Shown: piece by piece, positions 3,233 through 35,758 of the stretch | How positions within the stretch are numbered: the stretch's first letter is position 1 | Layout: every line of letters begins with the position of its first letter | IMG/VR virus record: IMGVR_UViG_3300036715_000321 | Location: 1 to 36,025 of that record | DNA from: a virus | Reading direction: 5' to 3' (one strand) | Length of the DNA: 36,025 bases | Translations under genes and position numbers: made by a program | The notes under the pieces: model-generated | The model's input: only the letters and a program-made list of their open reading frames with translations | Databases searched by the model: none | Told to the model about the DNA's origin: nothing

Positions 3233-3715
3233 ATGAAGTACATCTCCACGAAAACATACACCCAGATTGGCCCTGTTGCTTATCGTCAATGGCGAGCAGA
3301 TAGCCACTGTCGGTTTATTCACGGCTACGCGCTGTCTTTCCACTTCGAGTTTGAGTCCGATACTTTGGATGCTCGAAATTGGACACTGGACTTCGGGGGA
3401 CTTCGGGTCTTAAAAGAGAAGCTTGAAGACTGGTTTGACCACAAACTATTAGTCGCGCAGGACGACCCTCAGTACGCGGAACTCATTAAGCTGGGTGACC
3501 AGAAATTGGCTCAGATCACCGTCGTTGCAAAGACAGGCTGTGAGGGTATCGCAGAGTTCCTCTACGAGTACATCAACACCATCATGTTGCCCAGCTTTGG
3601 TGCTGGTGAAGCTGAACGAGTGTGGTGCTGCAGGGTTGAAGTGCGGGAAACCAACAGCAACATGGCGATGGTAGTTGGCCATCGTGAAGATAACCACCCG
3701 TGGGATGCCGTATGA
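3233..3715 (+). CDS. queD: QueD-like 6-carboxytetrahydropterin synthase
   Basis: A 160-residue member of the QueD/PTPS family, which converts dihydroneopterin triphosphate to 6-carboxy-tetrahydropterin, the second step of preQ0 synthesis after FolE. Visible signatures are SHCRFIHGY with H25, candidate catalytic C26 and H30; LDFGGL and FDHKLL; a Glu in KTGCEGIAEF; and the EVRETNSN strand near the end. The usual HxH zinc motif is H30-G-Y32, so one canonical zinc His is replaced by Tyr; H37 might substitute. Its TGA overlaps the QueE ATG (ATGA), consistent with coupled translation. Confidence in the family is high. Confidence 0.9.
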   Translation: MKYISTKTYTQIGPVAYRQWRADSHCRFIHGYALSFHFEFESDTLDARNWTLDFGGLRVLKEKLEDWFDHKLLVAQDDPQYAELIKLGDQKLAQITVVAKTGCEGIAEFLYEYINTIMLPSFGAGEAERVWCCRVEVRETNSNMAMVVGHREDNHPWDAV

Positions 3716-5818: not shown

Positions 5819-6251
5819 GGTACTTGTCTTTGATATTGATGGTTGCGTGTTTGACTCAGAGCATCGACTCCACCACTTGCTCGAAGGCCGCTTAGATGAC
5901 TACGACGAGGCTCATGTACATGACGTAGCAATCCCACAAGGCGTAGCGGTGTACAGAGCTATTGTCAATAGCTCAACCTGGACTATTCCTATTTTTGTAA
6001 CCGGACGCTCTGAGCGTGCGAGGGAATACACCATCAAACAGTTACGTTCCCTGTTCGACTTCGAGTTCTTTTTACTCATGAGACCCGATGGCGATACAAC
6101 CCATGACATGCTGCTCAAACCTAGGCTGTTGGCTGATGCTTGTGTGTTACCCGAGAACATCTTCATCGTGTTCGAGGACCGCGCTTCAATGGTAAAAGAG
6201 TGGCGTCGACTAGGCGTCGTTTGTTACCAGACTGCTACTGGAGATTTCTAA
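5709..6251 (+). CDS. HAD-superfamily / PNKP-like phosphatase
   Basis: A 180-residue protein with HAD motifs: FDIDGCVFD (nucleophile and acid Asp residues) near residue 41, FVTGRSERAREYT (motif II), LMRPDGD with a downstream Lys, and IFIVFEDRASMVKEW, where DDR is usual. The order resembles the 3'-phosphatase domain of T4 polynucleotide kinase, so a nucleotide or polynucleotide phosphatase is likely. Its first ~36 residues are Ser/Pro-rich and overlap queC by 110 bases; no start codon is seen between the queC stop and the catalytic motif, so the overlap seems genuine (ATG 5721 is an alternative). It ends in a TAATG junction with dpdA. Whether it acts in the deazaguanine pathway is unknown. Confidence 0.8.
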   Translation: MEPIMTDKLKSSPPSDSPSTNPSRDPKPLLSLTSASKVLVFDIDGCVFDSEHRLHHLLEGRLDDYDEAHVHDVAIPQGVAVYRAIVNSSTWTIPIFVTGRSERAREYTIKQLRSLFDFEFFLLMRPDGDTTHDMLLKPRLLADACVLPENIFIVFEDRASMVKEWRRLGVVCYQTATGDF

Positions 6252-10269: not shown

Positions 10270-10929
10270 ATGTCGAAACAAGACCCCGCGCTCGGACAAA
10301 AAGTGCATGAGCATTTGTTAGCTATTGGTGTGGAAACCCCCACTGTCGCCTCTGCTCTCGGTCGCCCTGCGGCTGACAAGATTGACGACCTCACCTCCCT
10401 GTTCACACAGATATGGTCTGTGGTGGGATTGGACCTTACAGATGACAGCCTGCAGGAGACTCCACTGCGCATGGCTAAGATGTATGTCAACGAGATTTAC
10501 TACGGACTCAATTACGACCTGTTCCCTAAGTGCACCACAGTGGACAACAAGATGGAGTACAGGGAAATGATTGTGGAGAAGAACGTTACCGTTCAATCGA
10601 ACTGTGAGCATCACGGCGTTGTAATTTCTGGCAAGGCCCATGTGTCTTACATCCCTAACCAGAAGGTGTTGGGTTTGTCGAAGATTAACCGCATCGTCGA
10701 GTTCTTCTCTAAGCGCCCACAAATCCAAGAGCGCCTTACGGAACAGATCTATCACGCTCTGTCCTGCATCCTTGAGACTGCCGATGTAGCGGTAATCGTC
10801 GAAGCCGAACACTACTGCGTAAAGTCCCGAGGTATTAAAGATACGGGTTCCTCCACTGTAACCTCTCGTGTTGGCGGTGCCTTCCTTCAACCAGCAACTC
10901 GTCAAGAGTTTCTTGCCCATATCAAGTAA
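10270..10929 (+). CDS. folE: GTP cyclohydrolase I
   Basis: A 219-residue GTP cyclohydrolase I that would open GTP to dihydroneopterin triphosphate, the first step toward preQ0. Signatures include SNCEHHGV with C112 and H115 and HYCVKSRGI with C183, the three zinc ligands; SYIPNQKVLGLSKI; and FSKRPQIQERLTEQI. Length fits the FolE type. It is separated from queD, queE and queC by about 5 kb that includes the glycosyl genes, yet completes the pathway in this window. It begins after a 70-base leader with AGAGGA as ribosome binding site and ends in a TAATG junction with the next gene. Confidence 0.95.
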   Translation: MSKQDPALGQKVHEHLLAIGVETPTVASALGRPAADKIDDLTSLFTQIWSVVGLDLTDDSLQETPLRMAKMYVNEIYYGLNYDLFPKCTTVDNKMEYREMIVEKNVTVQSNCEHHGVVISGKAHVSYIPNQKVLGLSKINRIVEFFSKRPQIQERLTEQIYHALSCILETADVAVIVEAEHYCVKSRGIKDTGSSTVTSRVGGAFLQPATRQEFLAHIK

Positions 10930-15822: not shown

Positions 15823-15846
15823 GGGACGGTCAACATTGACCGTCCC
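15823..15846 (+). terminator. terminator-like hairpin
   Basis: GGGACGGTCA pairs perfectly with TGACCGTCCC around a 4-base ACAT loop. The stem is strong, but the sequence after it (CTTGTCACG) has no T run, so it may be a stalling, processing or protein-binding hairpin rather than an intrinsic terminator. Confidence 0.45.
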
Positions 15847-15861
15847 CTTGTCACGTCCATT

Positions 15862-15902
15862 CTGTGCAGTACAAGTTTCAATTTCATTTTGTCTTTGCAC
15901 AG
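15862..15902 (+). promoter_or_regulatory. hairpin overlapping the ribosome binding site
   Basis: CTGTGCA (15862-15868) is exactly complementary to TGCACAG (15896-15902). The right arm covers part of AGGA (15901-15904), the ribosome binding site for ATG 15911. The 27-base loop is T-rich. The fold could dampen translation of the topoisomerase-like gene until opened. Confidence 0.4.
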
Positions 15903-15910
15903 GAATCACA

Positions 15911-17542
15911 ATGAAACTCTACATGCTAACCGCGTCACGTTTAGCTGACCTGCTACAGATCCTAGGCGCACTTATTGCCGATTATATGGAAAACCCGAAG
16001 GCTCCCATGTCTCGGGATTTGAAGCCCTTCGTCAAGAACGTACTTCAATGGAAGTCACTTCCCTCGCTTCCAGCTGCTGTCGACACGGCCATAAAAGGTG
16101 GCGACAAGTTATCCGCGTTGTTTGAGTTGTCTGCTGATATTAAGCAGGCGTACTCTAGCTATCACCAGGATAAGGACTTCGACACCACTGAGCTGAATAT
16201 GCTCAAACAGATCCGTAGCTACTTGGCTACGGACTCAGATACTGCGCTCAAGTACATCTGTAAGAACGCAGGTGTCTTCAATTCCCCCGAACTTGCCAAG
16301 ATCTTTCTACCCGCCGCTGTCGGTTCCGACCATAAGGCACTGCGCCGTTCTGTAAAGACGTTAGTGGGGCGTGACGGAACGTTCCTCACTGCCGATGAGA
16401 TGGCACTACTTAAAGATACTAACGCCAAAGGCCTTGCTGACTATCAAGCGCAACGTAAATCCCACAACGCGGACTACGCATCGTCACTTGTCCAATACGT
16501 GCGCTCGCAAAACAAATCCAAGGTACCTTACCAAGCAGCTTTCGACACGCTTACCAAACAGGGTTTCACGCACTCTATGGTTCCGGGCTTCATTGGTCTA
16601 ATAGACGATAAGGGGCGCTGGTACACCTCCAAAGGCGAGGCTATTGCCAATATACCCAACCTCGTGACCTACAGCCACGTTGTTATGAATGACGGCAAAG
16701 ACCCGGATGCGCAGTGGTCGTTTAAGGCCTACAAGCATGACGGTAGCGGGGTGGCCTATGGGTACACCGCAACCTTCCAAGCGCTGCAACGCAAAGCTAA
16801 GTCCGAGCACGTTAAAGAGCTAGCACTCAACATTGACAAGATTCGCGCGAAGTGGTTGGTGAAAGTTAAGAAATTCAACATTGCTGACCCCGATTCAGTG
16901 GCTGCGGTAGTTTTAGAAATCCTGTTCAGCTACGCAGCACGTATCGGTACTGCTCCCGGTCGCGGTGCGGGTACGTTACTTGTTAAGAATGCATCCGTAA
17001 CTAGCACGGGTATCAATCTTGCGTACTTGGGCAAAGATTCTATACCCACCAAACACATCATTAAGTCAGCAGACCCCATCCATAAGTATCTTGTTAAAGA
17101 CCTTACTGAACTTATGAGTGGCAAGACCAAAAACGATTTCCTTTACACCTACGATGTGAAGTCACGCAAGCTGCGCGTGACTCCTGCTATGGTGAATAAG
17201 GCGTTCCACACCTTCGGCGCCCCTAGCACTGTTACCGTCCACAAGCTACGTACCTTCCGTGGCACCGCACTATTCCTGCAACTGTCAGAAGCAGATGAAT
17301 CGCGTCGGGGGCCCGCTACGCAGAAGGACGCTATTCAGCGCTGGAAAGAGATGACTGAGAAGGTTGGTAAGCTGCTAAATCACAAACGTGGTGTAGGCAC
17401 GGACAACGAGAAAGTGACTGGTGTAACTGCCGCTACCAGCTACATCGCGCTCGAGGCACAAATGGACCTTTTCGACCGTTGGGGGTTCCGTCCACCAGTG
17501 GCTTTGGAGAAGGCCGCAAAGAACGAGAAGTCAGATGACTAA
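15911..17542 (+). CDS. topoisomerase IB / tyrosine-recombinase-like enzyme
   Basis: A 543-residue protein whose C-terminal half has the catalytic order of type IB topoisomerases and tyrosine recombinases. SYAARIGTAPGRGAG contains candidate catalytic R344; AYLGKDSIPTKH gives a Lys on the beta-hairpin; HKLRTFRGTA (444-453) matches the second Arg region (R447); LNHKRGVG supplies a His; and TAATSYIALEAQ contains candidate nucleophile Y511. YSHVVMNDGKDPDAQW near 258 resembles the DNA-clamp part of viral TopIB. It would relax supercoils by a 3'-phosphotyrosine intermediate. The ~250-residue N-terminus is unrecognised. The start is supported by AGGA upstream; the leader is hairpin-rich. Confidence 0.75.
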   Translation: MKLYMLTASRLADLLQILGALIADYMENPKAPMSRDLKPFVKNVLQWKSLPSLPAAVDTAIKGGDKLSALFELSADIKQAYSSYHQDKDFDTTELNMLKQIRSYLATDSDTALKYICKNAGVFNSPELAKIFLPAAVGSDHKALRRSVKTLVGRDGTFLTADEMALLKDTNAKGLADYQAQRKSHNADYASSLVQYVRSQNKSKVPYQAAFDTLTKQGFTHSMVPGFIGLIDDKGRWYTSKGEAIANIPNLVTYSHVVMNDGKDPDAQWSFKAYKHDGSGVAYGYTATFQALQRKAKSEHVKELALNIDKIRAKWLVKVKKFNIADPDSVAAVVLEILFSYAARIGTAPGRGAGTLLVKNASVTSTGINLAYLGKDSIPTKHIIKSADPIHKYLVKDLTELMSGKTKNDFLYTYDVKSRKLRVTPAMVNKAFHTFGAPSTVTVHKLRTFRGTALFLQLSEADESRRGPATQKDAIQRWKEMTEKVGKLLNHKRGVGTDNEKVTGVTAATSYIALEAQMDLFDRWGFRPPVALEKAAKNEKSDD

Positions 17543-21002: not shown

Positions 21003-22017
21003 CATAGTTGCTCTTCTGCGGTCCTACGGATTTACTGATCTGCAGCTACTTACGTTTGACCCGCTCACCAACACATCTAACTACAAGTACGGGGAGTCAG
21101 ATACCCGTAAACTGAAGTCTTTGGGTGAGGCTACCGTAACGTCCAACGGTAAGGTAGCTGTGTACCGTCTCAGTGACGTTGGGAAGTTAGGGTACTGCCC
21201 ATCGAAGTCCTTGGTGAGATTTATCTTTAAAGGTAAAGCTCGTCCTAATAAGCTGTCATTCGACTCTGCGGGTCACCGTATACCAACGCCACCAGAACTC
21301 GAACAGGCTTTTTATAAGGCACAGGCGAGTCCTGCATACCAAAAGGCCTTCGTAAAGAAGGTGTGGCTGTGGGCTAACCAGCACTTCTTCTCCTCGAAGA
21401 TGCGGCTACCTATTATTTACGTGGGTACTGTGTATCCACCAAACCCGAAGCTATCTAACGCCACTGGTGTAATGTCAGTAAGCCCATACGGTAAGCCCCC
21501 ACAGCTGTATGTCAACTCCAAGGGTTTTAATGCCACGGAGCAGATAATAGTCGGTACTATAGTGCATGAGATGTGCCATCAAGCTACTCACGAGATTGAC
21601 AAAGAGACGGCTGCCGAGTCCGTAGTCGACGCTGGGCACGGACCAGGCTGGCAGAAGTGGATGCGCCATTGCAACTTGGTACCTAACCGGCATGATTTTG
21701 AAGACCAGTTGGATTATGGTGATTCTACTGGTCGGTTATTGAAAAAGATTGCCCAGAATAAATTGCTTGGCCCTAAGGTGACACCCGACAGCTTTAGAGG
21801 ACTCAAGCAAGTAGACCCACGAAAACTTACATCCGCCGACGTCGTGTTGTTCGACCACGATGGGTATTTGGTGAGAGCTTACTTGCCAGCACAGACCCCG
21901 GTCATGACTTTCCAAGTGCTAAACCCCAAGGGCTTTGTAACCACGTACCTGGATGTGCGGGACCCCTCTGCCCACAAGTTCTACCTAGCACCGATTCAAA
22001 AGAAGGCACTTGAATGA
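20989..22017 (+). CDS. SprT-like metalloprotease
   Basis: A 342-residue protein with a zinc metalloprotease motif IVHEMCHQATHE: H193, E194 and H197, with a third ligand likely H217 in AGHGPGWQKWMR. That spacing and GHGxxW are typical of SprT/Spartan-like proteases, which in cells cut DNA-protein crosslinks; phage versions are common and uncharacterised. The N-terminal ~180 and C-terminal ~90 residues are unrecognised. ATG 20989 is chosen over an upstream ATG because of the shorter overlap with the Nudix gene. It ends in an ATGA overlap. Confidence 0.85.
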   Translation: MEQSDIVALLRSYGFTDLQLLTFDPLTNTSNYKYGESDTRKLKSLGEATVTSNGKVAVYRLSDVGKLGYCPSKSLVRFIFKGKARPNKLSFDSAGHRIPTPPELEQAFYKAQASPAYQKAFVKKVWLWANQHFFSSKMRLPIIYVGTVYPPNPKLSNATGVMSVSPYGKPPQLYVNSKGFNATEQIIVGTIVHEMCHQATHEIDKETAAESVVDAGHGPGWQKWMRHCNLVPNRHDFEDQLDYGDSTGRLLKKIAQNKLLGPKVTPDSFRGLKQVDPRKLTSADVVLFDHDGYLVRAYLPAQTPVMTFQVLNPKGFVTTYLDVRDPSAHKFYLAPIQKKALE

Positions 22018-23465
22018 ACACCTTTGTATTCTCCAAAGACGCCTCTGATTTTACGGCAACGCAGGATTTAGGATTGTCTATAGGTGAGACGATTACGTCT
22101 ATCGTTGTTGGTGTTTGTACCCCTACAGATGCACGCACCCCAACGCTTACTATACTTACAGGGACACAGAACCCTATAGGTTTTCGTCTGTCGTCTGGGT
22201 TAGCCAATACTACCTACGGGTTCCCGCTTACCATTACCACAACATTACGTGTAATGGTTGTGACCTTCGCGGTAGTTGTGCAGTCTTCAACCTTTGACCC
22301 GTACCCTGGGGCTGAGCCTGGATCTTATCAAGACCTAGTTGGTTCTCTCCAGCCCGGTAAGACTGGATTGGCCTCTACGGTATTTCAATTCGATGCTTCC
22401 TTCGACCCAGCGGGTGGTTATGTGCTGTGGGACTTGTTAGATAGCAACGGTACCATCTATTCGTCTGGCAACGCGTTCGAGTATAAGATCGTATCGTCGG
22501 GGATGTACAACACTGTAACTGCGAGATCGCTTATAAATGTTCCCTCCAATATTCCTCCCACAGTTGATGCTCCTTATCAGCTACGATACACTCTACGGGT
22601 GGGCAATGCCGTTAGCTACTCTTACGAAAGTCTTGTCGTCATCGGACTTGTCGACGTCCCCACAGGAGCCCAAGACAGCGTAGAGGTAGCTGGTGACCAT
22701 GCGCAGTTGACGCTGGTTACGGAGCAGCTGTACCCCAACTACGTACTGGAGCTTATGGCGGGTAACGACGTCGTAGCTTCCATGCCTGTTGATAATCCAG
22801 ACAAGGTGAGTAACGGTTATTTCGTCGGCGGGGTAGTTGATACATCTGTACTTCCTGTGTCGTTACTCCCCTACACCGTGCTCTGGAAGTTCTGGACAGT
22901 ACCATCGCGCACCTTCCGTGAGTCTGCCTCTTTGTGGGTGGTGAATGCCTCCATCATCCAGGCAGTCGATGACATTAAGTCCAAACTTAATAAGGCGCAC
23001 CAGACTCTGTTTGGTTCACCCGACTCGCAGTTCACTACGTTGAACTTAATGCCTTGCTTACGGCGGGGCATGGACGCATTTAATGCTGCCTACGGCCAGT
23101 TCACAGACTTCGATATGACCAACGCAAAGGGCCCTATCCGAGAGTTCTGGTTACTATATTCCGAGAAGTTGGCATTAGAAGCACAGTATCTGCTTAACGC
23201 GGAGAAGGCGTTCAACTTTCAGGGCGCAGCGATCTCCCTGGACGTTGACCAGACGCAGTTCATCGACACCATGATCGGCAAGATTCAATCACAGCTTGAC
23301 CAAGAAGCTAAACCGTTCAAACAGTCGCTGATAATCAAGGGAGTCATTCAAGGCGACGGCTCCCAGCGCCCACTCAATGGTACCCGCAGTTCTTTGGGCG
23401 CTGTAGGTATTACACTAACCCCAGTGTCCTATTTGAATGCGGGTGCTTATTACGGGAGTCTATAA
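22014..23465 (+). CDS. putative virion structural protein
   Basis: A 483-residue protein in an ATGA overlap with the SprT-like gene. The first ~300 residues are beta-rich with repeated strand/turn patterns (Thr, Val, Gly; PTVDAPYQLRYTLRVGNAV), suggesting Ig-like or tail-associated domains. From about 315 a helical region follows (VDDIKSKLNKAHQTLFG, then EKLALEAQYLLNAEKAF). The C-terminus ends in a Tyr/Gly-rich strand. This architecture fits a baseplate or tail component; no precise family is recognised. TAATG joins it to the next gene. Confidence 0.65.
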   Translation: MNTFVFSKDASDFTATQDLGLSIGETITSIVVGVCTPTDARTPTLTILTGTQNPIGFRLSSGLANTTYGFPLTITTTLRVMVVTFAVVVQSSTFDPYPGAEPGSYQDLVGSLQPGKTGLASTVFQFDASFDPAGGYVLWDLLDSNGTIYSSGNAFEYKIVSSGMYNTVTARSLINVPSNIPPTVDAPYQLRYTLRVGNAVSYSYESLVVIGLVDVPTGAQDSVEVAGDHAQLTLVTEQLYPNYVLELMAGNDVVASMPVDNPDKVSNGYFVGGVVDTSVLPVSLLPYTVLWKFWTVPSRTFRESASLWVVNASIIQAVDDIKSKLNKAHQTLFGSPDSQFTTLNLMPCLRRGMDAFNAAYGQFTDFDMTNAKGPIREFWLLYSEKLALEAQYLLNAEKAFNFQGAAISLDVDQTQFIDTMIGKIQSQLDQEAKPFKQSLIIKGVIQGDGSQRPLNGTRSSLGAVGITLTPVSYLNAGAYYGSL

Positions 23466-23833
23466 TGGGTGCGTTAGGAAAATTACTGAGATCTATAGAG
23501 GGTAACCGTGTAGCGTTCACCTGTCCGGGCTGCGGTAGTGGGCATGTATTGTCCGTAGACGTCAATGCGAGCCCACACTGGACTTTCAATTGGGACTTGG
23601 AAAAGCCTACGTTCGCCCCCTCCATACTTACCAATGGTACCCAATTTACGGAGAAGGGCTGGCAAGAGTACCGGGATTGGGAGAAGTCGGGATACCCTGA
23701 CCGAAAGGGGCAGCTGTTCGACAGTGAAGCTACGGTGTGCCATGCTTTTGTAACTGCGGGCTACATAGAATTCCTAACAGACTCTACGCACCATTTATCT
23801 GGTAGAACAGTACCTCTACCAGAATTTGATTAA
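23465..23833 (+). CDS. DUF6527-like phage protein
   Basis: A 122-residue protein matching a common phage family: FTCPGCGSGHVLSV, WTFNWDLEKPTFAPSIL, VCHAFVTAGYIEFLTDSTHH and GRTVPLPEF. The Cys pair and Cys/His residues suggest a zinc site. The family is close to DUF6527, proposed elsewhere to include metallopeptidases, and its phage members are often mislabelled ammonia monooxygenase. The active residues and substrate are not known to me. It begins at a TAATG junction. Confidence 0.75.
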   Translation: MGALGKLLRSIEGNRVAFTCPGCGSGHVLSVDVNASPHWTFNWDLEKPTFAPSILTNGTQFTEKGWQEYRDWEKSGYPDRKGQLFDSEATVCHAFVTAGYIEFLTDSTHHLSGRTVPLPEFD

Positions 23834-23905
23834 GCCCGCCACTAACGCGGTGTCACAAAGACGTTACACATAAGATACCTACCCTCAATTTCATGGGAAC
23901 ATCTA

Positions 23906-24280
23906 ATGAACCAAGATACCACACGTAGCAGACGACTATCAGATGCTAAGATGGCCGCACACGACCGCCGGCTTGCTCAGTGGGTGTCTTTGGTCAAAGG
24001 TACATTAACCATCTTTTCCTATGTATGGGATTGGGTGGACGAGCGTGACGTAGACAAGCACTTTATAGCCACAGTCACCATGTACTTTATGGTGTACCTT
24101 ATCCAGTGGGCGGAGCACTATGCGGCACTTAATGTGGCGCGCCCCGGATGGGAAGTGGCCGCTGTTATTGCCGCAGTCAACGCGCCTTACATGGCAATGC
24201 AGGCAGTGGTACTGAAGTTTTATTTTGATTACCGGACTCCTGTTAGTTACGGTGGGAGCAGACCCAATGTCATTCCATAG
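23906..24280 (+). CDS. small membrane protein (possible holin)
   Basis: A 124-residue protein with a charged N-terminus (TTRSRRLSDAKMAAHDRRL) and two hydrophobic helices: FIATVTMYFMVYLIQWAEHY around residue 55 and VAAVIAAVNAPYMAMQAVVL around residue 85. Size and topology fit a holin or phage inner-membrane protein, but there is no sequence-specific holin signature. It follows a 72-base gap and overlaps the HNH gene by 14 bases. Confidence 0.7.
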   Translation: MNQDTTRSRRLSDAKMAAHDRRLAQWVSLVKGTLTIFSYVWDWVDERDVDKHFIATVTMYFMVYLIQWAEHYAALNVARPGWEVAAVIAAVNAPYMAMQAVVLKFYFDYRTPVSYGGSRPNVIP

Positions 24281-24557
24281 ACCATTTGTTAGGAAGTCAT
24301 CGTCTGGTACAGCTCGTATCGTACGTGATTCCTATTCAAATGCGAATTCAAAAGTCCAATGGTGGACTATACGCAAAGAAGTATTTACGCGCGATGGCGG
24401 GTTATGCCAGGCCATTAAGGGTGGGAGAAAGTGTTTGACGAAGGGCACTGACGTTCACCACATAATTCCGCTCTCTAGGGGCGGAACTACCAGCAAAGCA
24501 AATCTTATGACAGTCTGCGACGACTGTCATAAGGATCGCCATTCACACATGGGGTAG
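24267..24557 (+). CDS. HNH endonuclease
   Basis: A 96-residue HNH nuclease. The beta-beta-alpha metal fold is visible: C47 and C56, then VHHIIPLSRGG with H64/H65, N79 in KANLMTVC, and C84-x2-C87 with H92. The Cys pairs bind structural zinc and the HNH residues cut DNA. It is small and free-standing. Phage HNH proteins of this size often aid DNA packaging with terminase or act as homing nucleases; no terminase is visible here, so the role is open. GGGAG lies before ATG 24267. Confidence 0.9.
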   Translation: MSFHRPFVRKSSSGTARIVRDSYSNANSKVQWWTIRKEVFTRDGGLCQAIKGGRKCLTKGTDVHHIIPLSRGGTTSKANLMTVCDDCHKDRHSHMG

Positions 24558-24559: not shown

Positions 24560-24676
24560 ATGACGATCAACGCCATTACCAAGACCCCATCCCAAACAAG
24601 TGCCCATAAAGGTACGGATGGCGATCTTGAAAAGGGAGCTTTTCATTGCGGGCAATTCCGCCCAAGAGAGCACTAA
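24560..24676 (+). CDS. small hypothetical protein (38 aa)
   Basis: A 38-residue ORF filling the gap between the HNH and hemerythrin genes: ATG two bases after the HNH stop, TAA two bases before the hemerythrin ATG. The product (MTINAITKTPSQTSAHKG and onward) is polar with one Cys. The call rests on spacing only. Confidence 0.45.
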   Translation: MTINAITKTPSQTSAHKGTDGDLEKGAFHCGQFRPREH

Positions 24677-24678: not shown

Positions 24679-25107
24679 ATGACACCCTCGATGATAGAAG
24701 CTGGTTGGTCCGACCAGTATGTAATAGGTTATGAAGCACTTGACACTCAGCACGAAGAGTTGTTTGACCTATGCGACACCATATTCCAAGCCCAAACTGA
24801 CGACGAAGTACGTGAGAGGTTTGCGGATTTTCGTACACTGTTGAAGTGGCACTTTGACCAAGAAGATATGCTCATGGCTTTCATATGCTATCCTAAGATG
24901 GAAGAGCACATGCAAATGCACAACGATATGGTTAATAGGTTGGATGCACTTAACGTGCACGGCATATCCGACATTCCTGCCTTCACAGAATTTGTTAAAG
25001 TCTGGATACTTGGACACATTCAATTACACGATATGGAGATTGCTGATTTCCGTAGCCGTTATATCGAATACACAACACAGTTGGGTCGTTTGGCGGCTCA
25101 CGCGTAA
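24679..25107 (+). CDS. bacteriohemerythrin
   Basis: A 142-residue hemerythrin-like four-helix protein that would bind O2 at a non-heme di-iron centre. All seven iron ligands are visible with canonical spacing: H25 (DTQHEEL), H58 and E62 (KWHFDQED), H77 and H81 (EEHMQMH), H113 and D118 (GHIQLHD). W10 and the start of helix A also fit. ATG 24679 is chosen because it directly follows the 38-residue ORF. It is a stand-alone domain, as in bacteriohemerythrins that deliver or sense oxygen. Such genes are unusual in phages; it may act as an auxiliary metabolic gene for oxygen supply, iron storage or redox sensing. Confidence 0.93.
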   Translation: MTPSMIEAGWSDQYVIGYEALDTQHEELFDLCDTIFQAQTDDEVRERFADFRTLLKWHFDQEDMLMAFICYPKMEEHMQMHNDMVNRLDALNVHGISDIPAFTEFVKVWILGHIQLHDMEIADFRSRYIEYTTQLGRLAAHA

Positions 25108-25116: not shown

Positions 25117-25314
25117 ATGAAACTCCAAGCAAAGACTCGCCTGAAAGCTACTGAAGAGAACCCGCTGGAAGATGGCGTAGCTTTCGATACGTTGACTGAT
25201 GGTGACCCCTCTACAGACACACCTGAAGTACAGCAAGTGACGCACGATGATGGTGGTGTTGAGAAGGCAGACCCAGATCAGAATTTGCTGATCGACGACA
25301 TTTCCGTCGGCTAA
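25117..25314 (+). CDS. small acidic hypothetical protein
   Basis: A 65-residue acidic protein (many Asp/Glu, few aromatics), likely disordered: TLTDGDPSTDTPEVQQVTHD in the middle. AAGGAAG precedes ATG 25117, nine bases after the hemerythrin stop. No motif is recognised. It could be a virion linker or scaffold peptide, but that is a guess. Confidence 0.6.
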   Translation: MKLQAKTRLKATEENPLEDGVAFDTLTDGDPSTDTPEVQQVTHDDGGVEKADPDQNLLIDDISVG

Positions 25315-25316: not shown

Positions 25317-25958
25317 ATGGGTAAAATTCCAAACCCCCTTAACTTCCCCAAGGTGTTCAACCCATTTGCGTTGGACCTTTGGTTCGCCGCATGTGCTACT
25401 GTGGACCCTAAGTCAAAGGGTGCTTGGAATATGGTGCTGCGAGATTTCAGGCACCGTTGCGCGAAGGCTGATCTCGATCCACACTTCCAAGGTGATTGGG
25501 ATTCTGCTATCCAGCACTTTCTCGCGGTGCGACGTAGGCACTTTGTACGCTACGCCGACATGACAAAGTTGGTGCAGGGTGTTAAAGTAATTCGCTCCGT
25601 TAGTCGTACGGTGGATTTCACGGATTTCGGTTTCCAGTTAACTGTGTCAGCACAGTGCCACATAGAAGACCCTACGTGGGTAAAGAAGCTGTTTAGGTTT
25701 ACGTCCAATCTACGCTTCTCGCCTATTCGAGATAGACAGCGTCGGTATGTACATCGCATAGACCCCGGATTGGAAGTTTTTGTCTATAACGAAATGATTT
25801 CTAGTACTAACGTATGGCACATAGGTTACACCATCAGTTGCCCGCTTATGCCAGATACCAAGGGCCAGGATCGTAAGAATTTTGTGCTCAACACTCTTTG
25901 GGCGCCTATACGTAGTCGCATGAAACCCAAGAAGGCTGACACCAGTCGCTACCTATGA
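25317..25958 (+). CDS. hypothetical protein
   Basis: A 213-residue basic protein with many aromatic and Arg residues. It contains a Trp/Phe-rich N-terminus (NPFALDLWFAACATV) and strands such as VDFTDFGFQLTVSAQCHIED. No motif is recognised. It overlaps the next gene by four bases (ATGA). Located before the large helicase, it may be a virion or DNA-binding component. Confidence 0.65.
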   Translation: MGKIPNPLNFPKVFNPFALDLWFAACATVDPKSKGAWNMVLRDFRHRCAKADLDPHFQGDWDSAIQHFLAVRRRHFVRYADMTKLVQGVKVIRSVSRTVDFTDFGFQLTVSAQCHIEDPTWVKKLFRFTSNLRFSPIRDRQRRYVHRIDPGLEVFVYNEMISSTNVWHIGYTISCPLMPDTKGQDRKNFVLNTLWAPIRSRMKPKKADTSRYL

Positions 25959-26323
25959 GCAATCTACCTACTATCGCCGAAGTACGACGTAAGCATGCGT
26001 ATATGATGCACACGTATTCGTTCATGTTCAAGATTCGTGAGTATAGCGCGCGAACAGCAGCAGTGTCATTACCCCAAGCCGTATCGCGCGCTAAAGGTAT
26101 GTACGTTAAGAACGTGCTAGGTCACGCACCTAACACCACTGCATTTAGGATTGCCATACGCCAAATGCAGGACGTTGCTATCGCCATACATCTCGACCCG
26201 TTGGCCCGCCAGCGTTTCTCTGAGTTGTACCGAGAACAGTACCAACTCAGCATTACAGATTTACCTACTCAAGTTGAATTCGTCCAACTTGAAGACATTG
26301 TAAATAAGTTATCTAACACCTGA
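25955..26323 (+). CDS. hypothetical protein
   Basis: A 122-residue, largely helical, basic protein starting in an ATGA overlap. Its segments PTIAEVRRKHAYMMHTYSFM and QVEFVQLEDIVNKLS are amphipathic. No family is recognised. It ends ten bases before the helicase ATG and is probably cotranscribed with it. Confidence 0.65.
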   Translation: MSNLPTIAEVRRKHAYMMHTYSFMFKIREYSARTAAVSLPQAVSRAKGMYVKNVLGHAPNTTAFRIAIRQMQDVAIAIHLDPLARQRFSELYREQYQLSITDLPTQVEFVQLEDIVNKLSNT

Positions 26324-26333: not shown

Positions 26334-29300
26334 ATGCAAATTACCGCAGCGGAGATCAAGCGACCCCAGTCGAATCTCCTACCAGATACCAAATACTCAT
26401 TGCCCGCGCTGGAATTGCGAACGGGCTTTCTTGGCGTCTTCCGTCGTGCGTACAAAGGCGAGGGTCGAAAATCCTTGTTCCGTGTTGCCATGGCCGCGTT
26501 CATGGATACCGCCCATATGTCCACTGGACGTGCGCCTCGCCCCAAATCGCAGGAAGAACGCACAGCACGGCGCAACTACATCAAGGAAATTAACCTCTGG
26601 GCTGAGGCACGTGCCAAGCAGAACCTACAACAGTACACGAAGCTTTCCAAGGTAAACGACGGCGATAAGTCGCACTTTACCTTGGACCTGCCTATCGCCA
26701 TTATCCGAAGCGTACCTGACCTTTTAAGTATGTTGCGGTTCTTTACGCCTGTACTTCCTAACGAGGAACAGTTGACCGTCATCGACGCCGCGTTGTCACA
26801 CGAACTTGGAGTCGACAGTGCGGGTAAGCAGGTACTGTCTATCGCTGACTTCTACACGGCTGGTAAAGTTCTGGCCAATGCGCATCTTGGGTCTGATGCA
26901 CAGGCTCTGTTCTCTACGTGCTTAAAGGGTGTTCGTGTAACACGCACAGGCTCAGGTTCACTGTTGGCCCTAGTATTCAATGTGCCTGCACGTACAGCAG
27001 AGTATCTGACCTCTATGGATTGGTTGGAGATTCGTGCCATTGATCTTTACCCGCTGTTTAGCGGTTGGGTGGAGGCCGAGTACGTGCCCGTGGACTACTC
27101 CAAGACCACCACATCAATCTCCAAGATCGCAGCCACTTTGCCCCAACACCAAGAGGCTGACGAGCGCATTGACCAGTACGGGATAGGCATTACGTATTCT
27201 GGCGAACCTATTTTCCTGCCTAAGACGTGCAATCGTACTAATGACTACGAGTCCAAGTTTGCAGCGGCGTCCGTTGCTAATGAAGGCGCGTTTGCACTCC
27301 GCACTCCAGAGAAGCCGGATACTCCTGCCTTGCCCTCGAACATTCCAATCTTAGTGGATTGGGTTAACTTCAAGTTCGCATATACGGACACTATGGGAAA
27401 GATCAAGGTTCAGATGCTGGAGCATGTACGTAAGTGCAATCCATCTATGGCTATGAACTTGTTGCACAACGATATGCCTGTGACCTACGTTAAAGGTCTC
27501 ATGGGTTATGCACGCCAGTGCAGTATGGGCACACGTATTTTCCCGGAGTCTGGGGATGGCAATGGTGCGGAAGTCGATGCGTTCTTCGAGTCCTTCCTAA
27601 AGCACCAAGAACTAGCAACCCCCGGCTATAGCCCACGTTACGTTGACATTACTATGGGCACCGACTTCCCCGAATTGATGCCCTTGGTGAGGTGGGTATC
27701 TGCGCTTTACCGGGCTATGCTTACCAACCTCGATGCTCTGTATGAACGTTACGCTGTAACCACTATTACAGATCAGTTGGGTATGATTGCGGTTATTGGT
27801 GCGTATGGTGACAAGTTGGAGGAGACGCGCGCCGCGGCCAACACCTTGAACAAGAAGGCAGCTAATCAAGGTGTTGACCCCAACTGGACACCCCCACCGC
27901 TGCCGCTGCTTACCAAAGGCTTCGCGGAAGAAGGTAAGGGCGTGCAGCCCCACCAGTTGAAGATCTTGAACATTGCTAAGGAGCGCCCAGACAATATGAT
28001 TCTGGACGTTGCTGCTGGAGGTGGTAAATCCCTATTGGCCGTTACCGACGTACTAAAGGAGATTGCTGCGGGTGAATCTGCTCCTTACCTTATCATGTGC
28101 CCTGCGACACTCATTGCTAACTACGTTAGCGAGATCGTGGAGTTTACTGATGGTAAGCTAAACGTAATTCCAATTACTTCCTACAACATCCGCACATCTG
28201 GCTACAAGCGCTACCAGGAAATCCTGAAAGCTGCTCCTCTGAATACCGTGCTGGTTGTTGATTACGACGCCCTGAAGTTCCGGTCCCGCGCAGCAGGCTA
28301 CGGTACGGCTACGGTGCGCGTTTATCCTGTGATTGACATGATTCGTCAGTTCAATCCTGGGTACGCCTACTTAGACGAAGCCCACATACTGAAGAACCCT
28401 AACTCTGCTCGGGCAGCCGCCGTTATGTATTTGGTTGCAGACATTCCCAAGAAGCGGCTGGCTTCGGGTACTTTGACCCCGGATTCACCTTCCGACTTGG
28501 CAGGTGAGTTGGCTATTCTTGACCCAACCATTCTAGGCTCACGCGACAAATTCAATGAGAAGTACGGTGAGTCTACTGCTGGTGGGCGTGTAACTAAGTG
28601 GAAAGAGACTGGAAACAACGCCGTGTCTCGTGTTATCCCAAGGGTCATGAACAGTATAGTGTGGGCTAAGGCTGAGCGTAAAGAATGGGCCTACGCACTA
28701 CCCAATCGTGAAGACCGCTTCTTGGCTGTCCAGCTCACAGACAACCAGAAGACCATGTACGACGCTTTGTTTGATGACATGATTCAGCAGATTCGTAAGC
28801 GCGCTGAGACCGATAAGAATGCTCGTCGTTTGTTGGATGGTTTGCTTGGTAAGTCGGCTGCTGCAGAAGATGAAGATGCCTTCGGGGATCTGAGTGACAC
28901 GGATGAAGTAGAAGACGACGGCGAAGAGGGCGCTGATATTGGGCCAGCCCTGCAGCCCTACCTCGCTGACATTGAACGTTTCGTTACTGACCCTGCGTCG
29001 CACCCCTATTCACGCAATGGTTTCGTCAAACAAGACGGCACCCACGTTGCAGCGCTCACGGGCGATGATTTGAAGTCTGGTAAAGCGCTAGCCTTGCAGC
29101 AGTGTATGGAAGAGTGGTTCAAGTCCGGCAAGACCTCGAAGATATTAATTTTCGTGAACTACAACGCATCTGCCGACTCGCTGTTCAATGCTATGTCTCC
29201 TGAGCTGCAGGAATGTGGTTTGCGGTACTCTACTTCACAGAAGACTGAGCACGTTAACAAGTTCAAGACAGACCCCAATATTAAGTGGATGATTGGTATT

Positions 29301-30995
29301 CGGAAATCGCTGGAGACCGGTTTGAACTTGCAGGCTGCTGGTTACCTTATCCGTATCGAAGGGGTATGGACACCAGGTGAGCAGGAACAAGGTGACTCGC
29401 GTGTGGCACGTCCGTTCTTTGGTGCCGGTGGCGATAAACGCAGTGGTATTCTTTTTGATACCATTGTAGCTGACCGAACTATAGACGTTACCAAAGCCGC
29501 GCGTCTGCGTGCCAAGATTGTGGCTAATGCTAAATTCTTGCACCCAACAGACCCAGTCTACCAGTCGATCGAATCCATCCCCGTTATACAAATGACGTTG
29601 GATTCCATTATGACGCAGAACGACTTCAATAACGAATTGCGCCAGTATCACACGTCAATCGAGCAACTTAATACCGTTATTAAGGCTGAGTACGCTGAGT
29701 ACAAGGCCAAGGTTGAAGCCACGGGTGGTAGTAAGTTTACGCAGATTCCAGCGGCACCGATTCCTCCCGGTTGTGCTATATTATCTTCTGTGCCGTATGC
29801 ACAGGGCACCGAACTCTACTCAGCCTCCGAGCTGGGTTTGGTTCGTGTTGACAACTACTTGGGCATGGATTTGACTGACGAGGAAGACGTTGAAGGTGAC
29901 GACGAGGGAGGGGAGTCTGCTGAAACCCTCTCCCAGAAGCAGAAGATTATGGGTAAGCGTTGCCATTGTGAAAGCGGTGACGGTATTATTGTTGGTGCTA
30001 CTGGCGGTGATCACATTCACCGGGTGCATGTGAGGTTGGATGATGGGACTACCGCGGTTGGTCTTCCGGCGACAACCGTGTTTATCGTTACTCGCACCGA
30101 GACCAACGGTGAAGACATGAGGTTAAAGTTAGCGCAAGCTGCAGGCCTACCTATGGTTGGCAGGATCACAGCCCCAAGTGGTAACGTGCGGGAAACCAAG
30201 ATCACCAAGCGCGAGCAAATGGAGATTGAGAAGGAACAGGAACGTCTTGCTGAGGAAGAGCGCAAACGCTCTCGTCCTGCGCAGTTGTCTATTGGTTTGG
30301 ATCTTTCCATCGTGAACGGCTACATGCGGGTTGGTTATGTTATAGGTAAGGAGGTACGTGCAGTTAAGGCTCTGGAATCCCTGGGCTTCAAGAAAGAACC
30401 GCAGTACGTTGGTACTCGCATTCGTTCATACAAGCATCTTATCAACCAGGCTAGCTTGTGGGCGAAGGCGGGCTTCAACACATCCTCCGATACGGACGAC
30501 GATACGTTTGCTGTGTTGGCCGATGAGCTGGCGAAGGGTGGGCTTACTACCCATCACCACTTTCTAAAGACGTTGGCTCGTGCTAACTTTAGCAACTACA
30601 TGCGTAAGGCATGGAAGGCAACCGCAGACAAGCGAATGTTACAGTTGTTTGCTTTGGTAACTGACGGCGGTGATCGTGATCCTGCAGCAATCAAGGAGGC
30701 ACAGCGTACTGGTGTTACGCAGTACGGTCAAGCGTATCTGTGCTTGCCATACGGTGGTGGTCATCCTGCGACACGTTTGGCTATTGCTTCCAAGTACAAG
30801 TCTCCATCAACAAGATGGTTGCTTAGTGACCCAGCGCTCAGCGTGTATGTGGCGAATATCCAAGGCGTCCATAAAATACTGAAGAGCCTGCAAGACGCCG
30901 GTATCGCAGTCAACAACATCGCAGAGCTCAACAAGCAAGCAAAGTCGGTGAAGAAGATTAATCCAAAGACCGACAACACCGTCGATGTGAAGTAA
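26334..30995 (+). CDS. SNF2-like DEAH helicase, 1553 residues
   Basis: A very large superfamily 2 helicase. The ATPase core is central: AAGGGKSLLA near 560 (Walker A), YLDEAH near 680 (Walker B), SGTLTPDSP near 710 (motif III), TGLNLQAAGYLIRIEG near 995 and QGDSRVARP near 1020 (motif VI). The motif order and the Q-x-D-SR-x-R end resemble SNF2-type translocases. About 550 unassigned residues precede the core and ~500 follow it; acidic linkers lie near 850 and 1180. It could remodel or translocate DNA in replication, recombination or packaging, or be carried in the virion like DarB-type proteins. It is followed by a terminator and head genes. Confidence 0.88.
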   Translation: MQITAAEIKRPQSNLLPDTKYSLPALELRTGFLGVFRRAYKGEGRKSLFRVAMAAFMDTAHMSTGRAPRPKSQEERTARRNYIKEINLWAEARAKQNLQQYTKLSKVNDGDKSHFTLDLPIAIIRSVPDLLSMLRFFTPVLPNEEQLTVIDAALSHELGVDSAGKQVLSIADFYTAGKVLANAHLGSDAQALFSTCLKGVRVTRTGSGSLLALVFNVPARTAEYLTSMDWLEIRAIDLYPLFSGWVEAEYVPVDYSKTTTSISKIAATLPQHQEADERIDQYGIGITYSGEPIFLPKTCNRTNDYESKFAAASVANEGAFALRTPEKPDTPALPSNIPILVDWVNFKFAYTDTMGKIKVQMLEHVRKCNPSMAMNLLHNDMPVTYVKGLMGYARQCSMGTRIFPESGDGNGAEVDAFFESFLKHQELATPGYSPRYVDITMGTDFPELMPLVRWVSALYRAMLTNLDALYERYAVTTITDQLGMIAVIGAYGDKLEETRAAANTLNKKAANQGVDPNWTPPPLPLLTKGFAEEGKGVQPHQLKILNIAKERPDNMILDVAAGGGKSLLAVTDVLKEIAAGESAPYLIMCPATLIANYVSEIVEFTDGKLNVIPITSYNIRTSGYKRYQEILKAAPLNTVLVVDYDALKFRSRAAGYGTATVRVYPVIDMIRQFNPGYAYLDEAHILKNPNSARAAAVMYLVADIPKKRLASGTLTPDSPSDLAGELAILDPTILGSRDKFNEKYGESTAGGRVTKWKETGNNAVSRVIPRVMNSIVWAKAERKEWAYALPNREDRFLAVQLTDNQKTMYDALFDDMIQQIRKRAETDKNARRLLDGLLGKSAAAEDEDAFGDLSDTDEVEDDGEEGADIGPALQPYLADIERFVTDPASHPYSRNGFVKQDGTHVAALTGDDLKSGKALALQQCMEEWFKSGKTSKILIFVNYNASADSLFNAMSPELQECGLRYSTSQKTEHVNKFKTDPNIKWMIGIRKSLETGLNLQAAGYLIRIEGVWTPGEQEQGDSRVARPFFGAGGDKRSGILFDTIVADRTIDVTKAARLRAKIVANAKFLHPTDPVYQSIESIPVIQMTLDSIMTQNDFNNELRQYHTSIEQLNTVIKAEYAEYKAKVEATGGSKFTQIPAAPIPPGCAILSSVPYAQGTELYSASELGLVRVDNYLGMDLTDEEDVEGDDEGGESAETLSQKQKIMGKRCHCESGDGIIVGATGGDHIHRVHVRLDDGTTAVGLPATTVFIVTRTETNGEDMRLKLAQAAGLPMVGRITAPSGNVRETKITKREQMEIEKEQERLAEEERKRSRPAQLSIGLDLSIVNGYMRVGYVIGKEVRAVKALESLGFKKEPQYVGTRIRSYKHLINQASLWAKAGFNTSSDTDDDTFAVLADELAKGGLTTHHHFLKTLARANFSNYMRKAWKATADKRMLQLFALVTDGGDRDPAAIKEAQRTGVTQYGQAYLCLPYGGGHPATRLAIASKYKSPSTRWLLSDPALSVYVANIQGVHKILKSLQDAGIAVNNIAELNKQAKSVKKINPKTDNTVDVK

Positions 30996-31875: not shown

Positions 31876-32631
31876 ATGGCACTGCAATTCCCTAAAGCGT
31901 ACTACGACCGATCGCATGGTCGTCCTCCTATTCAGGGTCTTGCGGTTTCGCAGGAACCTGCCGTGGATCTTGAACAGGCACCAGAGCAAATCGCAAAGTT
32001 GGACTTCGCAAACTGGTTGCCTTTCGCAGCAAAGACTTACCACATAAGTCCGCGTATTGAGGATTACATTCTCAAACCGATGCCCATATGCCCCTCAGAC
32101 ATCCCCAACCGCAACGGTGTGGGCTTCCCCCTGTCTGAGTTGCTTAAATATCAACCACCTCCTATAGCACGTCAAGTGTACAAGGCGTGGACTGGCTGCC
32201 CTGTTCACCTAGAACACGACAACGAAGATCACACCAAAGCCTACGGTGTTATATTTGACACTGTGCTGACACCTATTACCGGATACGGCGATGATCGGTT
32301 CTGGAAGGTGATGGGGCTTATAGGTATTGATAAGGTAAAGCACCCAGATATTGCCCAGGAAGTGCTGACGGGGAAGATTAACACGGGCTCGATGGGGGCT
32401 ATGGCCGATTACTTTACGTGTTCTGTGTGTGGTAAGGAAGCCCACGAGAACAACTACAAGAATTGTGCCCACATATCGTCTACCAAGGACGTCAACTGGC
32501 GCATCGTGGATTTCAATGGCGAGAAACACATGGCATACCTTAATGCCCATGAACTATCCCCGATCGAGTTCTCGTTGGTTTCCACTCCCGCGTGGACTGT
32601 AGCCCTTTCTGATTATCATTTTTCTTGGTAG
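31876..32631 (+). CDS. prohead maturation protease-like protein
   Basis: A 251-residue protein resembling phage head maturation proteases. It has PVHLEHDNEDHTKAYGVIFD with H111/H114, a strand segment FWKVMGLIGIDKV, and INTGSMGAMADYFTCSVCG with candidate nucleophile S172 followed by a CSVCG...CAHI zinc-like motif. The end, HELSPIEFSLVSTPAWTV, is the usual SPxEFSLVxxPA strand. Such enzymes degrade scaffold and trim capsid proteins. Its last 17 codons are duplicated in diverged form at 33825-33881, downstream of a homing endonuclease, indicating that the original 3' end was displaced by the insertion. Confidence 0.65.
   Translation: MALQFPKAYYDRSHGRPPIQGLAVSQEPAVDLEQAPEQIAKLDFANWLPFAAKTYHISPRIEDYILKPMPICPSDIPNRNGVGFPLSELLKYQPPPIARQVYKAWTGCPVHLEHDNEDHTKAYGVIFDTVLTPITGYGDDRFWKVMGLIGIDKVKHPDIAQEVLTGKINTGSMGAMADYFTCSVCGKEAHENNYKNCAHISSTKDVNWRIVDFNGEKHMAYLNAHELSPIEFSLVSTPAWTVALSDYHFSW
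32617..32631 (+). repeat. direct repeat, upstream copy
   Basis: CATTTTTCTTGGTAG encodes the last residues HFSW and the stop of the protease. An identical 15-base copy is at 33867-33881, and the two flank the homing endonuclease gene. Confidence 0.85.
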
Positions 32632-34422: not shown

Positions 34423-34980
34423 ATGGCAGCCCCTCCTAAGGGAGGACTTACAACGATGCTGCTTTCAAATCTTCACGAAACGGTTCCCGCCGGATTAACT
34501 GTAGCCCTCTACAAAGGCACCAGACCGGGTATGTCTGGTGTTATGAATAGAGTTGGTCGTTACCTAGATGACGGTAATTACTCCCACTCTGAGCTTATCA
34601 TACGTGGGCTTAGCTACTCCTCCTCCTTTGAAGACAAGGGAGTACGCGCAAAAGTAATTAACTACTCCTCTGTGGGTTGCTGGGACTTTATACCTATAGC
34701 AGACCCCGCCGGAGAGTTAGCCGCTGGCGCCTTGACGTGGTTCTACACACACATGGGCCAACCATATGACCTTTTGGGCAACCTGCATTTTGTATTTGGT
34801 TTTGTGCGCAACAGTGATGGTAGATGGTTTTGTAGTGAGTCCACCGCGGCGGCGCTAGGTTTCCACGAACCTCATCGTTACGGGCCATCTGGTCTGGCCG
34901 CAGCTATTGGTGATCGTTTCGGGTCACCCATTATTAGAATTCCAAAACTCAGAGAATATGACACACAAACCACATCCTAA
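34423..34980 (+). CDS. permuted papain-like (YiiX/NlpC-P60-type) amidase
   Basis: A 185-residue member of a phage family with a permuted papain-fold hydrolase look: VALYKGTRPGMSGVMNRVG, then NYSHSELI with H55, WDFIPI, the MGQPYDLLGN segment, and WFCSES with candidate nucleophile C137. The His-before-Cys order is the permuted YiiX/NlpC arrangement. It may be an amidase or peptidase acting on cell wall or lipid substrates. GGAGG precedes ATG 34423, which is why this start is preferred. It overlaps the following peptidase gene by 23 bases. Confidence 0.75.
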   Translation: MAAPPKGGLTTMLLSNLHETVPAGLTVALYKGTRPGMSGVMNRVGRYLDDGNYSHSELIIRGLSYSSSFEDKGVRAKVINYSSVGCWDFIPIADPAGELAAGALTWFYTHMGQPYDLLGNLHFVFGFVRNSDGRWFCSESTAAALGFHEPHRYGPSGLAAAIGDRFGSPIIRIPKLREYDTQTTS

Positions 34981-35758
34981 AGCCGTATCCCGTCAATTGT
35001 CTTGGAAGCGCCAGGACGTAGACGAGCGTGACCATCAAGTTAAGACCAGCCCGTACTTTACATTGGTACACCACAAAGACCTGCCACACTCTGTGGATCT
35101 GCGGCCTGGTTGCCCTCCTGTTTATGACCAGGGTAACCTAGGTTCGTGTACAGCTAATGCACTAGTTGGGGCATTAGAGTATTTGGAGAATACTGCACAT
35201 GACCTGGAAGTTGAGAATGCCTTTGCACCTCTAAGTCGGCTATTCGTTTACTACAACGAACGTGTGGTAGAAGGGACGGTCAAGCAGGACGCTGGGGCAC
35301 AATTGCGTGATGGTATTAAGGTACTAGCGAAGACCGGTGCTTGTAAGGAAGACCTATTCCCTTACAACATACATGCGTTTACTAAGCATCCAGCCCCTGA
35401 TGCGTATACAGATGCTACGCATAGAAAAATTACTGCGTACGCTGCGGTCGAGCAATCGCTAAGCGGGTTGAAGCAAGCATTGGCCTCTGGTTATCCGGTT
35501 GCGTTCGGCTTCGAAGTCTTTACCTCTTTTGAGACCGAGGCAGTTGCGGAAACCGGAATTCAGCTACTACCACAACCACACGAACACCACATGGGTGGGC
35601 ACGCTGTACTGATGGTAGGTTACGACGACGCAGATCAAACTTTCCTAGTACGTAACTCTTGGTCTGCGGAATGGGGCATCTCGGGTTATTTCAAGATGCC
35701 CTACGCTTACGCGGTCGATAGCAAACTAGCGAGCGACTTCTGGGTGATAAATAAGTGA
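34958..35758 (+). CDS. C1A papain-like cysteine peptidase
   Basis: A 266-residue papain-family peptidase. Gln and Cys of the active site are in YDQGNLGSCTANA (C64), His in MGGHAVLMVGYD (H215) and Asn in VRNSWSAEWG (N233), all in the right order; the WG-x-x-GYFKMP tail matches C1 peptidases. There is no signal peptide, and the ~50-residue N-terminus is too short for a full propeptide. It could process phage or host proteins in the cell, or travel with the virion. It overlaps the previous gene by 23 bases and ends a trio of Cys-His hydrolase-like genes. Confidence 0.9.
   Translation: MTHKPHPKAVSRQLSWKRQDVDERDHQVKTSPYFTLVHHKDLPHSVDLRPGCPPVYDQGNLGSCTANALVGALEYLENTAHDLEVENAFAPLSRLFVYYNERVVEGTVKQDAGAQLRDGIKVLAKTGACKEDLFPYNIHAFTKHPAPDAYTDATHRKITAYAAVEQSLSGLKQALASGYPVAFGFEVFTSFETEAVAETGIQLLPQPHEHHMGGHAVLMVGYDDADQTFLVRNSWSAEWGISGYFKMPYAYAVDSKLASDFWVINK

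What the first reader, a model, noticed from the sequence alone, without database searches (positions are those of the whole stretch)
24679..25107. Phage-encoded bacteriohemerythrin with all seven iron ligands
H25, H58, E62, H77, H81, H113 and D118 are present at canonical spacing, so it should bind O2. Oxygen carriers are rarely reported in phages. It sits between an HNH gene with a tiny ORF and small unknown genes, not in a metabolic block, and may help oxygen-dependent host metabolism, or sense O2 or NO.
Basis: partly seen in the sequence, partly recalled or inferred. Interest (0 to 1): 0.7.

Follow-up and report, generated by a model that had tools for sequence, protein, structure and literature searches.

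The report
Oxygen-binding hemerythrin in a jumbo phage
A large phage, related to the giant phages Motura and BcepSaruman, carries an intact gene for hemerythrin, an iron-based oxygen-binding protein not described in the phage papers and collections searched here; similar genes turned up in other large phages, so some phages may manage their host's oxygen.

Summary
The ORF at 24679-25107 (+) encodes a 142-residue single-domain hemerythrin with all seven di-iron ligands (H25, H58, E62, H77, H81, H113, D118). It passes the TIGR02481 and PF01814 cut-offs, and its AlphaFold model (pLDDT 94) matches DcrH-Hr and Methylococcus hemerythrin (Z 17). The window is a fragment of a phage collinear with jumbo phages Motura and BcepSaruman. 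The gene sits in a tightly packed run of virion/late genes, with phage-like codon usage, but no other record of the group searched has it above cut-off (21 searched). It is therefore a lineage-specific cargo gene, not an assembly error.

'Rare in phages' is partly right. PHROGs, BFVD, INPHARED and the literature searched hold no genuine phage case. A ligand-motif scan of IMG/VR found about 50 hemerythrin stretches; 11 of the contigs carry a terminase, one contig has four copies, and one lineage shows dN/dS 0.05-0.12. So hemerythrins recur in large phages.

O2 binding is well supported by sequence and fold but untested. The role is inferred: O2 buffering or delivery first, protection of O2-labile iron-sulfur enzymes second. 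The three closest relatives searched encode a ribonucleotide reductase about 1-2 kb upstream of the equivalent slot.

The parts
24679..25107 (+). hemerythrin gene, 142 aa, single domain
   Evidence: TIGR02481 1.9e-21, PF01814 9.4e-12; AF2 model pLDDT 93.7, four-helix bundle, Z 17.1 to DcrH-Hr and McHr
24751..24753 (+). codon of ligand H25
   Evidence: translation; invariant in 54 bacterial and 40 viral hemerythrins
24850..24864 (+). codons of ligands H58 and E62 (HFDQE)
24907..24921 (+). codons of ligands H77 and H81 (HMQMH)
25015..25032 (+). codons of ligands H113 and D118 (HIQLHD)
   Evidence: aligned to the HIMKED segment of DcrH-Hr
24560..24676 (+). 38-aa mini-ORF ending 2 bases before the hemerythrin ATG; possible translational coupling
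   Evidence: no homologue found; inference
24267..24557 (+). HNH endonuclease conserved at this place in the phage group
   Evidence: PF01844 1.7e-11 (run on 24276-24554); 46% to BcepSaruman gp91, 41% to Motura gp179
25117..25314 (+). small acidic protein with the group's N-terminal MxLxAxxRLxA motif, 9 bases after the hemerythrin stop
   Evidence: homologues at the same place in L013, L014, L016, L019, L020; motif
25317..25958 (+). conserved unknown, homologue of BcepSaruman gp89 and Motura gp181
   Evidence: 29% identity, E about 1e-19
25955..26323 (+). small unknown shared with the nearest relatives
26334..30995 (+). large SNF2-type helicase conserved in the group
   Evidence: PF00176 3.1e-19; 32% to gp88/gp182
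31876..32631 (+). homologue of the annotated head maturation protease
   Evidence: 56% to BcepSaruman gp85, 57% to Motura gp185
22014..23465 (+). head-tail connector protein
   Evidence: phrog_17327 2.5e-57; 42-43% to BcepSaruman/Motura
23465..24280 (+). DUF6527 protein and a 124-aa protein lying between connector and HNH
   Evidence: PF20137 4.1e-13; w23906 homologues in L013, L014, L016, L020

Best explanation
A jumbo phage of the Motura/BcepSaruman group has acquired a single-domain, soluble hemerythrin and expresses it with its virion/late genes. The protein folds as a four-helix bundle that holds a di-iron centre through five His, one Glu and one Asp, and binds O2 reversibly in a hydrophobic pocket. 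In the infected cell it most likely buffers or delivers O2, so that O2-dependent steps (respiration and di-iron class I ribonucleotide reductase) keep running during the burst of DNA synthesis in a host at low or fluctuating O2. Shown here: identity, ligand set, predicted fold, phage origin, position in a packed gene run, absence from relatives, recurrence in other phages. Inferred: iron loading, reversible O2 binding, expression time, and the O2-supply role.
For: Family and fold: (all 14 top structural matches are hemerythrins; Z 14.8 for the last of them against 11.1 for the next row). All seven ligands are present. W109, I110 and I114 align with W, L and I of the DcrH-Hr segment around its last His ligand; that these line the O2 pocket is from general knowledge. 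No transmembrane, kinase or chemoreceptor part is fused. Phage origin: homologues in the same order in BcepSaruman and Motura; codon index 0.79, within the 0.73-0.84 of most other genes. The three nearest relatives searched carry a ribonucleotide reductase small subunit (PF00268) just upstream of the same gene run, with nrdA beside it in the two read clearly. In another phage contig (G792) three hemerythrins lie near a 2OG-Fe(II) oxygenase, an O2-using enzyme. One phage lineage keeps its hemerythrin under purifying selection, dN/dS 0.05-0.12. O2 delivery by a bacteriohemerythrin is proposed for methanotrophs (PMC12607906).
Against: No spectrum or iron analysis exists. The window itself shows no ribonucleotide reductase or oxygenase. 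Among Hr-bearing phage contigs none had PF00268 and only two had PF13640, so a general link to O2-using enzymes is not shown. A small protein stores little O2 unless it is very abundant. The gene is missing from every searched relative, so it is dispensable in the group. The window protein itself could not be tested for selection because no close homologue was found.
Confidence: 0.45

Rival explanations
1. O2 scavenger that protects O2-labile phage or host iron-sulfur enzymes. It would lower free O2 near enzymes such as the phage's own radical-SAM enzyme (3700-4524, in the queuosine/7-deazaguanine cluster).
For: Campylobacter HerA/HerB protect Por and Oor iron-sulfur enzymes (PMC4257069). The window encodes a radical-SAM protein beside QueD- and QueC-like genes.
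Against: The radical-SAM gene is 20 kb away. Relatives were not tested for having the cluster without hemerythrin. Protection needs O2 turnover or high abundance.
Confidence: 0.25
2. O2 or NO sensor or NO sink: the single-domain protein signals through a partner, or removes NO during infection of denitrifying hosts.
For: Bacterial hemerythrin genes lie near O2-sensing, denitrification and chemotaxis genes in Methylomonas (PMC12607906); DcrH-Hr, the best structural match, is a receptor domain.
Against: No fused output domain and no regulator next to it. The ligand set is that of O2-binding hemerythrin; NO-repair proteins of the YtfE/RIC type have another arrangement (from general knowledge).
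Confidence: 0.12
3. Virion component or packaged protein: because it lies among head genes it may be carried in the capsid, for example for iron or oxidative protection of the DNA.
For: It sits in a packed run from head-tail connector to head protease; the neighbour w25117 bears the N-terminal motif common in this group.
Against: The hemerythrin lacks that N-terminal motif and is absent in relatives, so it is not needed for the head.
Confidence: 0.08
4. Neutral passenger: a captured host gene with no benefit to the phage.
For: Present in only one member of the group searched; the slot between HNH and w25117 varies in length and content.
Against: All ligands and the fold are intact and codon use is phage-like; no cellular sequence above 35% identity was found, so it is not a fresh capture from the genomes sampled.
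Confidence: 0.1

Closest known systems
Bacteriohemerythrin McHr of Methylococcus capsulatus (PDB 4xpx)
   Same: Single domain, same fold (Z 17.1, 122 residues aligned), same ligand pattern
   Different: 20% identity; cellular gene thought to serve methane oxidation; here in a phage late-gene run
DcrH-Hr of Desulfovibrio (PDB 2avk, 2awc)
   Same: Same fold (Z 17.1) and ligands; 22% identity over 124 residues
   Different: DcrH-Hr is a domain of a chemotaxis receptor (general knowledge); here the domain stands alone
Myohemerythrin of Themiste (PDB 2mhr)
   Same: Same fold (Z 16.0), seven ligands
   Different: Animal protein; 20% identity
Other IMG/VR hemerythrins found here (L100-L143, L149-L154), e.g. 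lineage L118/L124/L132
   Same: Mostly stand-alone hemerythrins, several on contigs of over 100 kb; five ligands fixed, H113 and D118 nearly so
   Different: 16-25% identity to the window protein in the alignment used; other phage lineages and other gene neighbours
Motura and BcepSaruman/BcepSauron phages
   Same: Same phage group: collinear connector, HNH, helicase, protease
   Different: No hemerythrin found in their genomes

Membership tests
Hemerythrin domain family (TIGR02481 / PF01814) | Score above the curated cut-offs | tested here: met
   76.4 vs 51.75 bits; 46 vs 25.3 bits
Hemerythrin domain family (TIGR02481 / PF01814) | Seven di-iron ligands H, H-xxx-E, H-xxx-H, H-xxxx-D | tested here: met
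Hemerythrin domain family (TIGR02481 / PF01814) | Four-helix bundle of hemerythrin type | tested here: met
   AF2 pLDDT 93.7; 14 hemerythrin structures lead with Z 14.8-17.1
Hemerythrin domain family (TIGR02481 / PF01814) | Binds two irons and O2 reversibly | not testable with these tools
   needs purified protein
Bacteriohemerythrin subfamily NF033749 | Score above 84 bits | tested here: not met
   63 bits, E=2.9e-17: related, but outside this curated subfamily
Classical hemerythrin subfamily TIGR00058 | Score above 131.85 bits | tested here: not met
   50.1 bits
Motura/BcepSaruman jumbo phage group | Collinear connector, HNH, w25317, helicase, protease homologues | tested here: met
Motura/BcepSaruman jumbo phage group | Genome of 200 kb or more | not testable with these tools
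   the record is a 36-kb fragment; group relatives reach 217-264 kb

The most novel reading that the evidence does not exclude
Hemerythrins form a recurrent, so far undescribed class of genes in large phages, acquired several times and kept by selection, by which phages buffer or steer O2 inside the infected cell (for example towards di-iron ribonucleotide reductase or 2OG oxygenases).
Probability: 0.4. Interest if true: 0.75.

Novelty: new member of a known kind. Interest (0 to 1): 0.55.

Why it matters
Phages are known to carry genes for photosynthesis and even a methane monooxygenase subunit (PMC7674155), but not, in the sources searched, O2-binding proteins. If phage hemerythrins bind O2, control of intracellular O2 becomes a new way for a phage to shape its host, testable with a small, coloured and easily purified protein. 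The recurrence in several large-phage lineages makes it more than a curiosity.

Tried and rejected
Exact-peptide scans with the single protein found nothing in viral contigs and no relative in genomes. Wide alignment A3 was too diverged for a pattern search; A5 gave no viral hit. A mistyped pattern with the Met codon in the wrong place cost one scan and was redone. INPHARED 'Acinetobacter phage MD-2021a' hits were rejected: the contig carries fur, pilT, argB and other chromosomal genes. Record MT837110 is an unverified 7.7-kb scaffold and was not used. Assembly chimera was rejected: tight gene spacing, conserved flanks, phage-like codon use. A common operon partner for phage hemerythrins was sought in 104 neighbour proteins and not found. 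The tree pairs the window protein with L135 (99/82), but branches are long, the bootstrap had not settled, and L135 may be host DNA at a prophage edge, so I draw no origin from it. Promoter-like sites near the gene are as frequent as in shuffles, and the terminator-like ones point to no clear transcript end at the gene. Some pattern hits are probably bacterial: in L149 the hemerythrin lies in a 793-aa frame that looks like a chemoreceptor, and hits at contig ends such as L102 or L117 may be host flanks. BFVD gave no match with E below 0.001 among viral structures.

Full report
Observation. The frame from 24679 to 25107 encodes 142 residues with H25, H58, E62, H77, H81, H113 and D118. It passes TIGR02481 (76.4 bits against 51.75) and PF01814 (46 against 25.3), but not the narrower NF033749 bacteriohemerythrin model (63 against 84) or TIGR00058. 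I therefore call it a single-domain hemerythrin rather than a member of those subfamilies. It matches no PHROG.

Structure. An AlphaFold2 model from an alignment of 44 window, viral and bacterial sequences has pLDDT 93.7 and four helices, 19-37, 41-68, 74-90 and 99-141. Against PDB the first 14 rows by VIA-align are hemerythrins, from Z 17.1 for DcrH-Hr and Methylococcus hemerythrin down to 14.8, with unrelated bundles starting at 11.1. Foldseek agrees. BFVD has no match with E below 0.001. The alignment to DcrH-Hr places W109, I110, H113, I114 and D118 on W, L, H, I and D of its last ligand helix; that this segment lines the O2 pocket is from general knowledge.

The phage. G000 is a 36,025-base virus record. 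The head-tail connector (22014) is 42-43% identical to those of Burkholderia phages BcepSaruman/BcepSauron (263 kb) and Achromobacter phage Motura (221 kb). Connector, HNH, w25317, SNF2 helicase, head protease and the two proteins w17552 and w18759 all have homologues in those genomes, mostly in the same order. A protease profile found 31 IMG/VR loci of the group. In these, HNH, w25117, w25317 and helicase keep their order where present, while the stretch between HNH and w25117 varies. In the window the hemerythrin fills that stretch: it starts 2 bases after a 38-aa ORF and ends 9 bases before w25117. Its codon index (0.79) is typical of the phage genes. A PF01814 search of 21 records of the group, including the whole BcepSaruman and Motura genomes, found no hemerythrin over the cut-off and only one weak partial match. 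The gene is thus a lineage-specific addition in a conserved virion/late-gene run.

Cellular relatives. About 800 genomes sampled in Burkholderiales and Pseudomonadota gave best matches of 35% identity or less, E down to 9e-16. The source lineage is therefore unknown, and a recent capture from the sampled genomes is unlikely.

Other phages. INPHARED has no genuine case: the only annotated hits are chromosomal contigs apparently mislabelled as phage. A DNA pattern for HFxxE...YP....HxxxH, which recovers most known hemerythrins in the loci at hand, was scanned over IMG/VR with one added codon. It gave 44 stretches, and a second version added six. All score as hemerythrin with a profile built from bacterial sequences. 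The residues not fixed by the pattern are also kept: H25 in 40 of 40, H113 in 36, D118 in 37. Eleven contigs also hold a terminase of phrog_2, seven a tail sheath. G774 has four hemerythrins, G792 three, and G787, G788 and G801 two each. Recognisable neighbours are ordinary phage genes such as polynucleotide kinase, RNA ligase, clamp loader, PhoH, HNH and endolysin, with no partner common to them. Three contigs (L118, L124, L132) share hemerythrin and neighbours at 80-85% DNA identity with dN/dS 0.05-0.12, so the gene is maintained there. The tree scatters viral among bacterial sequences: 17 label changes, at least 4 forced by supported branches. This points to several acquisitions, though long branches limit it. 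Some of the 50 stretches are bacterial or lie at prophage edges, so the number is an upper estimate for true phage genes in this scan, while the pattern misses diverged members.

Function. The complete ligand set, the fold and the absence of any fused output domain favour reversible O2 binding by a soluble carrier. Two roles are on record for bacterial hemerythrins: O2 delivery, proposed for methanotrophs (PMC12607906), and protection of iron-sulfur enzymes, shown in Campylobacter (PMC4257069). For O2 supply speaks that the three closest relatives searched (G805-G807) carry a ribonucleotide reductase small subunit upstream of w23906; nrdA lies next to it in the two whose region could be read clearly. 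In the window that place holds DUF6527, and the hemerythrin lies about 1 kb further on. That class I enzymes need O2 is established knowledge; the exact subclass was not tested. A second hint is the 2OG-Fe(II) oxygenase beside the tandem hemerythrins of G792. Against it, no Hr-bearing contig had PF00268. I rank O2 buffering or delivery first (0.45 including the untested steps) and protection second (0.25).

Literature. Searches for hemerythrin with phage, jumbo phage, bacteriophage genome, auxiliary metabolic gene and AMGs showed no report of a phage hemerythrin among the titles and passages seen. One paper on integrated elements of Thaumarchaeota lists a hemerythrin HHE family among shared genes (PMC6563490), and a study of hemerythrin evolution does not mention viruses (PMC4919030). 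Only open-licence papers were searchable, so an unseen report is possible.

Verdict. The protein is a new member of a known family; its setting, and the recurrence of such genes in large phages, are the new part. Interest 0.55.

Noticed in passing
window 25117-25314; L002, L003, L012-L042: Many otherwise unlike proteins of this jumbo-phage group start with a motif like MxIQAAxRLxA: 20 matching start sites (about 12 annotated genes) in 41 kb of Motura and 126 in 513 kb of group loci, against 15 in 392 kb of other viral loci and 15 in 201 kb of bacterial loci. It may be a capsid-targeting or protease-cleaved leader.
   Followed up: partly
window 3233-5818 and 10270-10929: QueD-like (PTPS), radical-SAM (QueE-like), QueC and GTP cyclohydrolase I genes: a 7-deazaguanine pathway, perhaps for DNA modification. 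The TGT/DpdA-like look of the ORF at 6140-7552 is by eye only; it had no Pfam match.
   Followed up: partly
L146 6158-9604, L147 5462-8912, G805 50785-51579: Closest relatives of the window phage carry class I ribonucleotide reductase genes between connector and w23906, a place where the window has DUF6527.
   Followed up: partly
L128 2633-4395 (contig G792): Two hemerythrin genes overlapping by 4 bases, a third on the contig, next to a 2OG-Fe(II) oxygenase.
   Followed up: partly
L107, L126, L137 (contig G774, 111.8 kb): Four different hemerythrin genes on one viral contig; no terminase or sheath match found, so its nature is open.
   Followed up: no
window 15836-17542 and 34907-35758: A type IB (eukaryotic-like) topoisomerase and a papain-family cysteine protease in the phage.
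   Followed up: no
L043 (CAKLQH020000030): Records labelled Acinetobacter phage MD-2021a hold chromosomal genes (fur, pilT, argB) and look mislabelled.
   Followed up: yes
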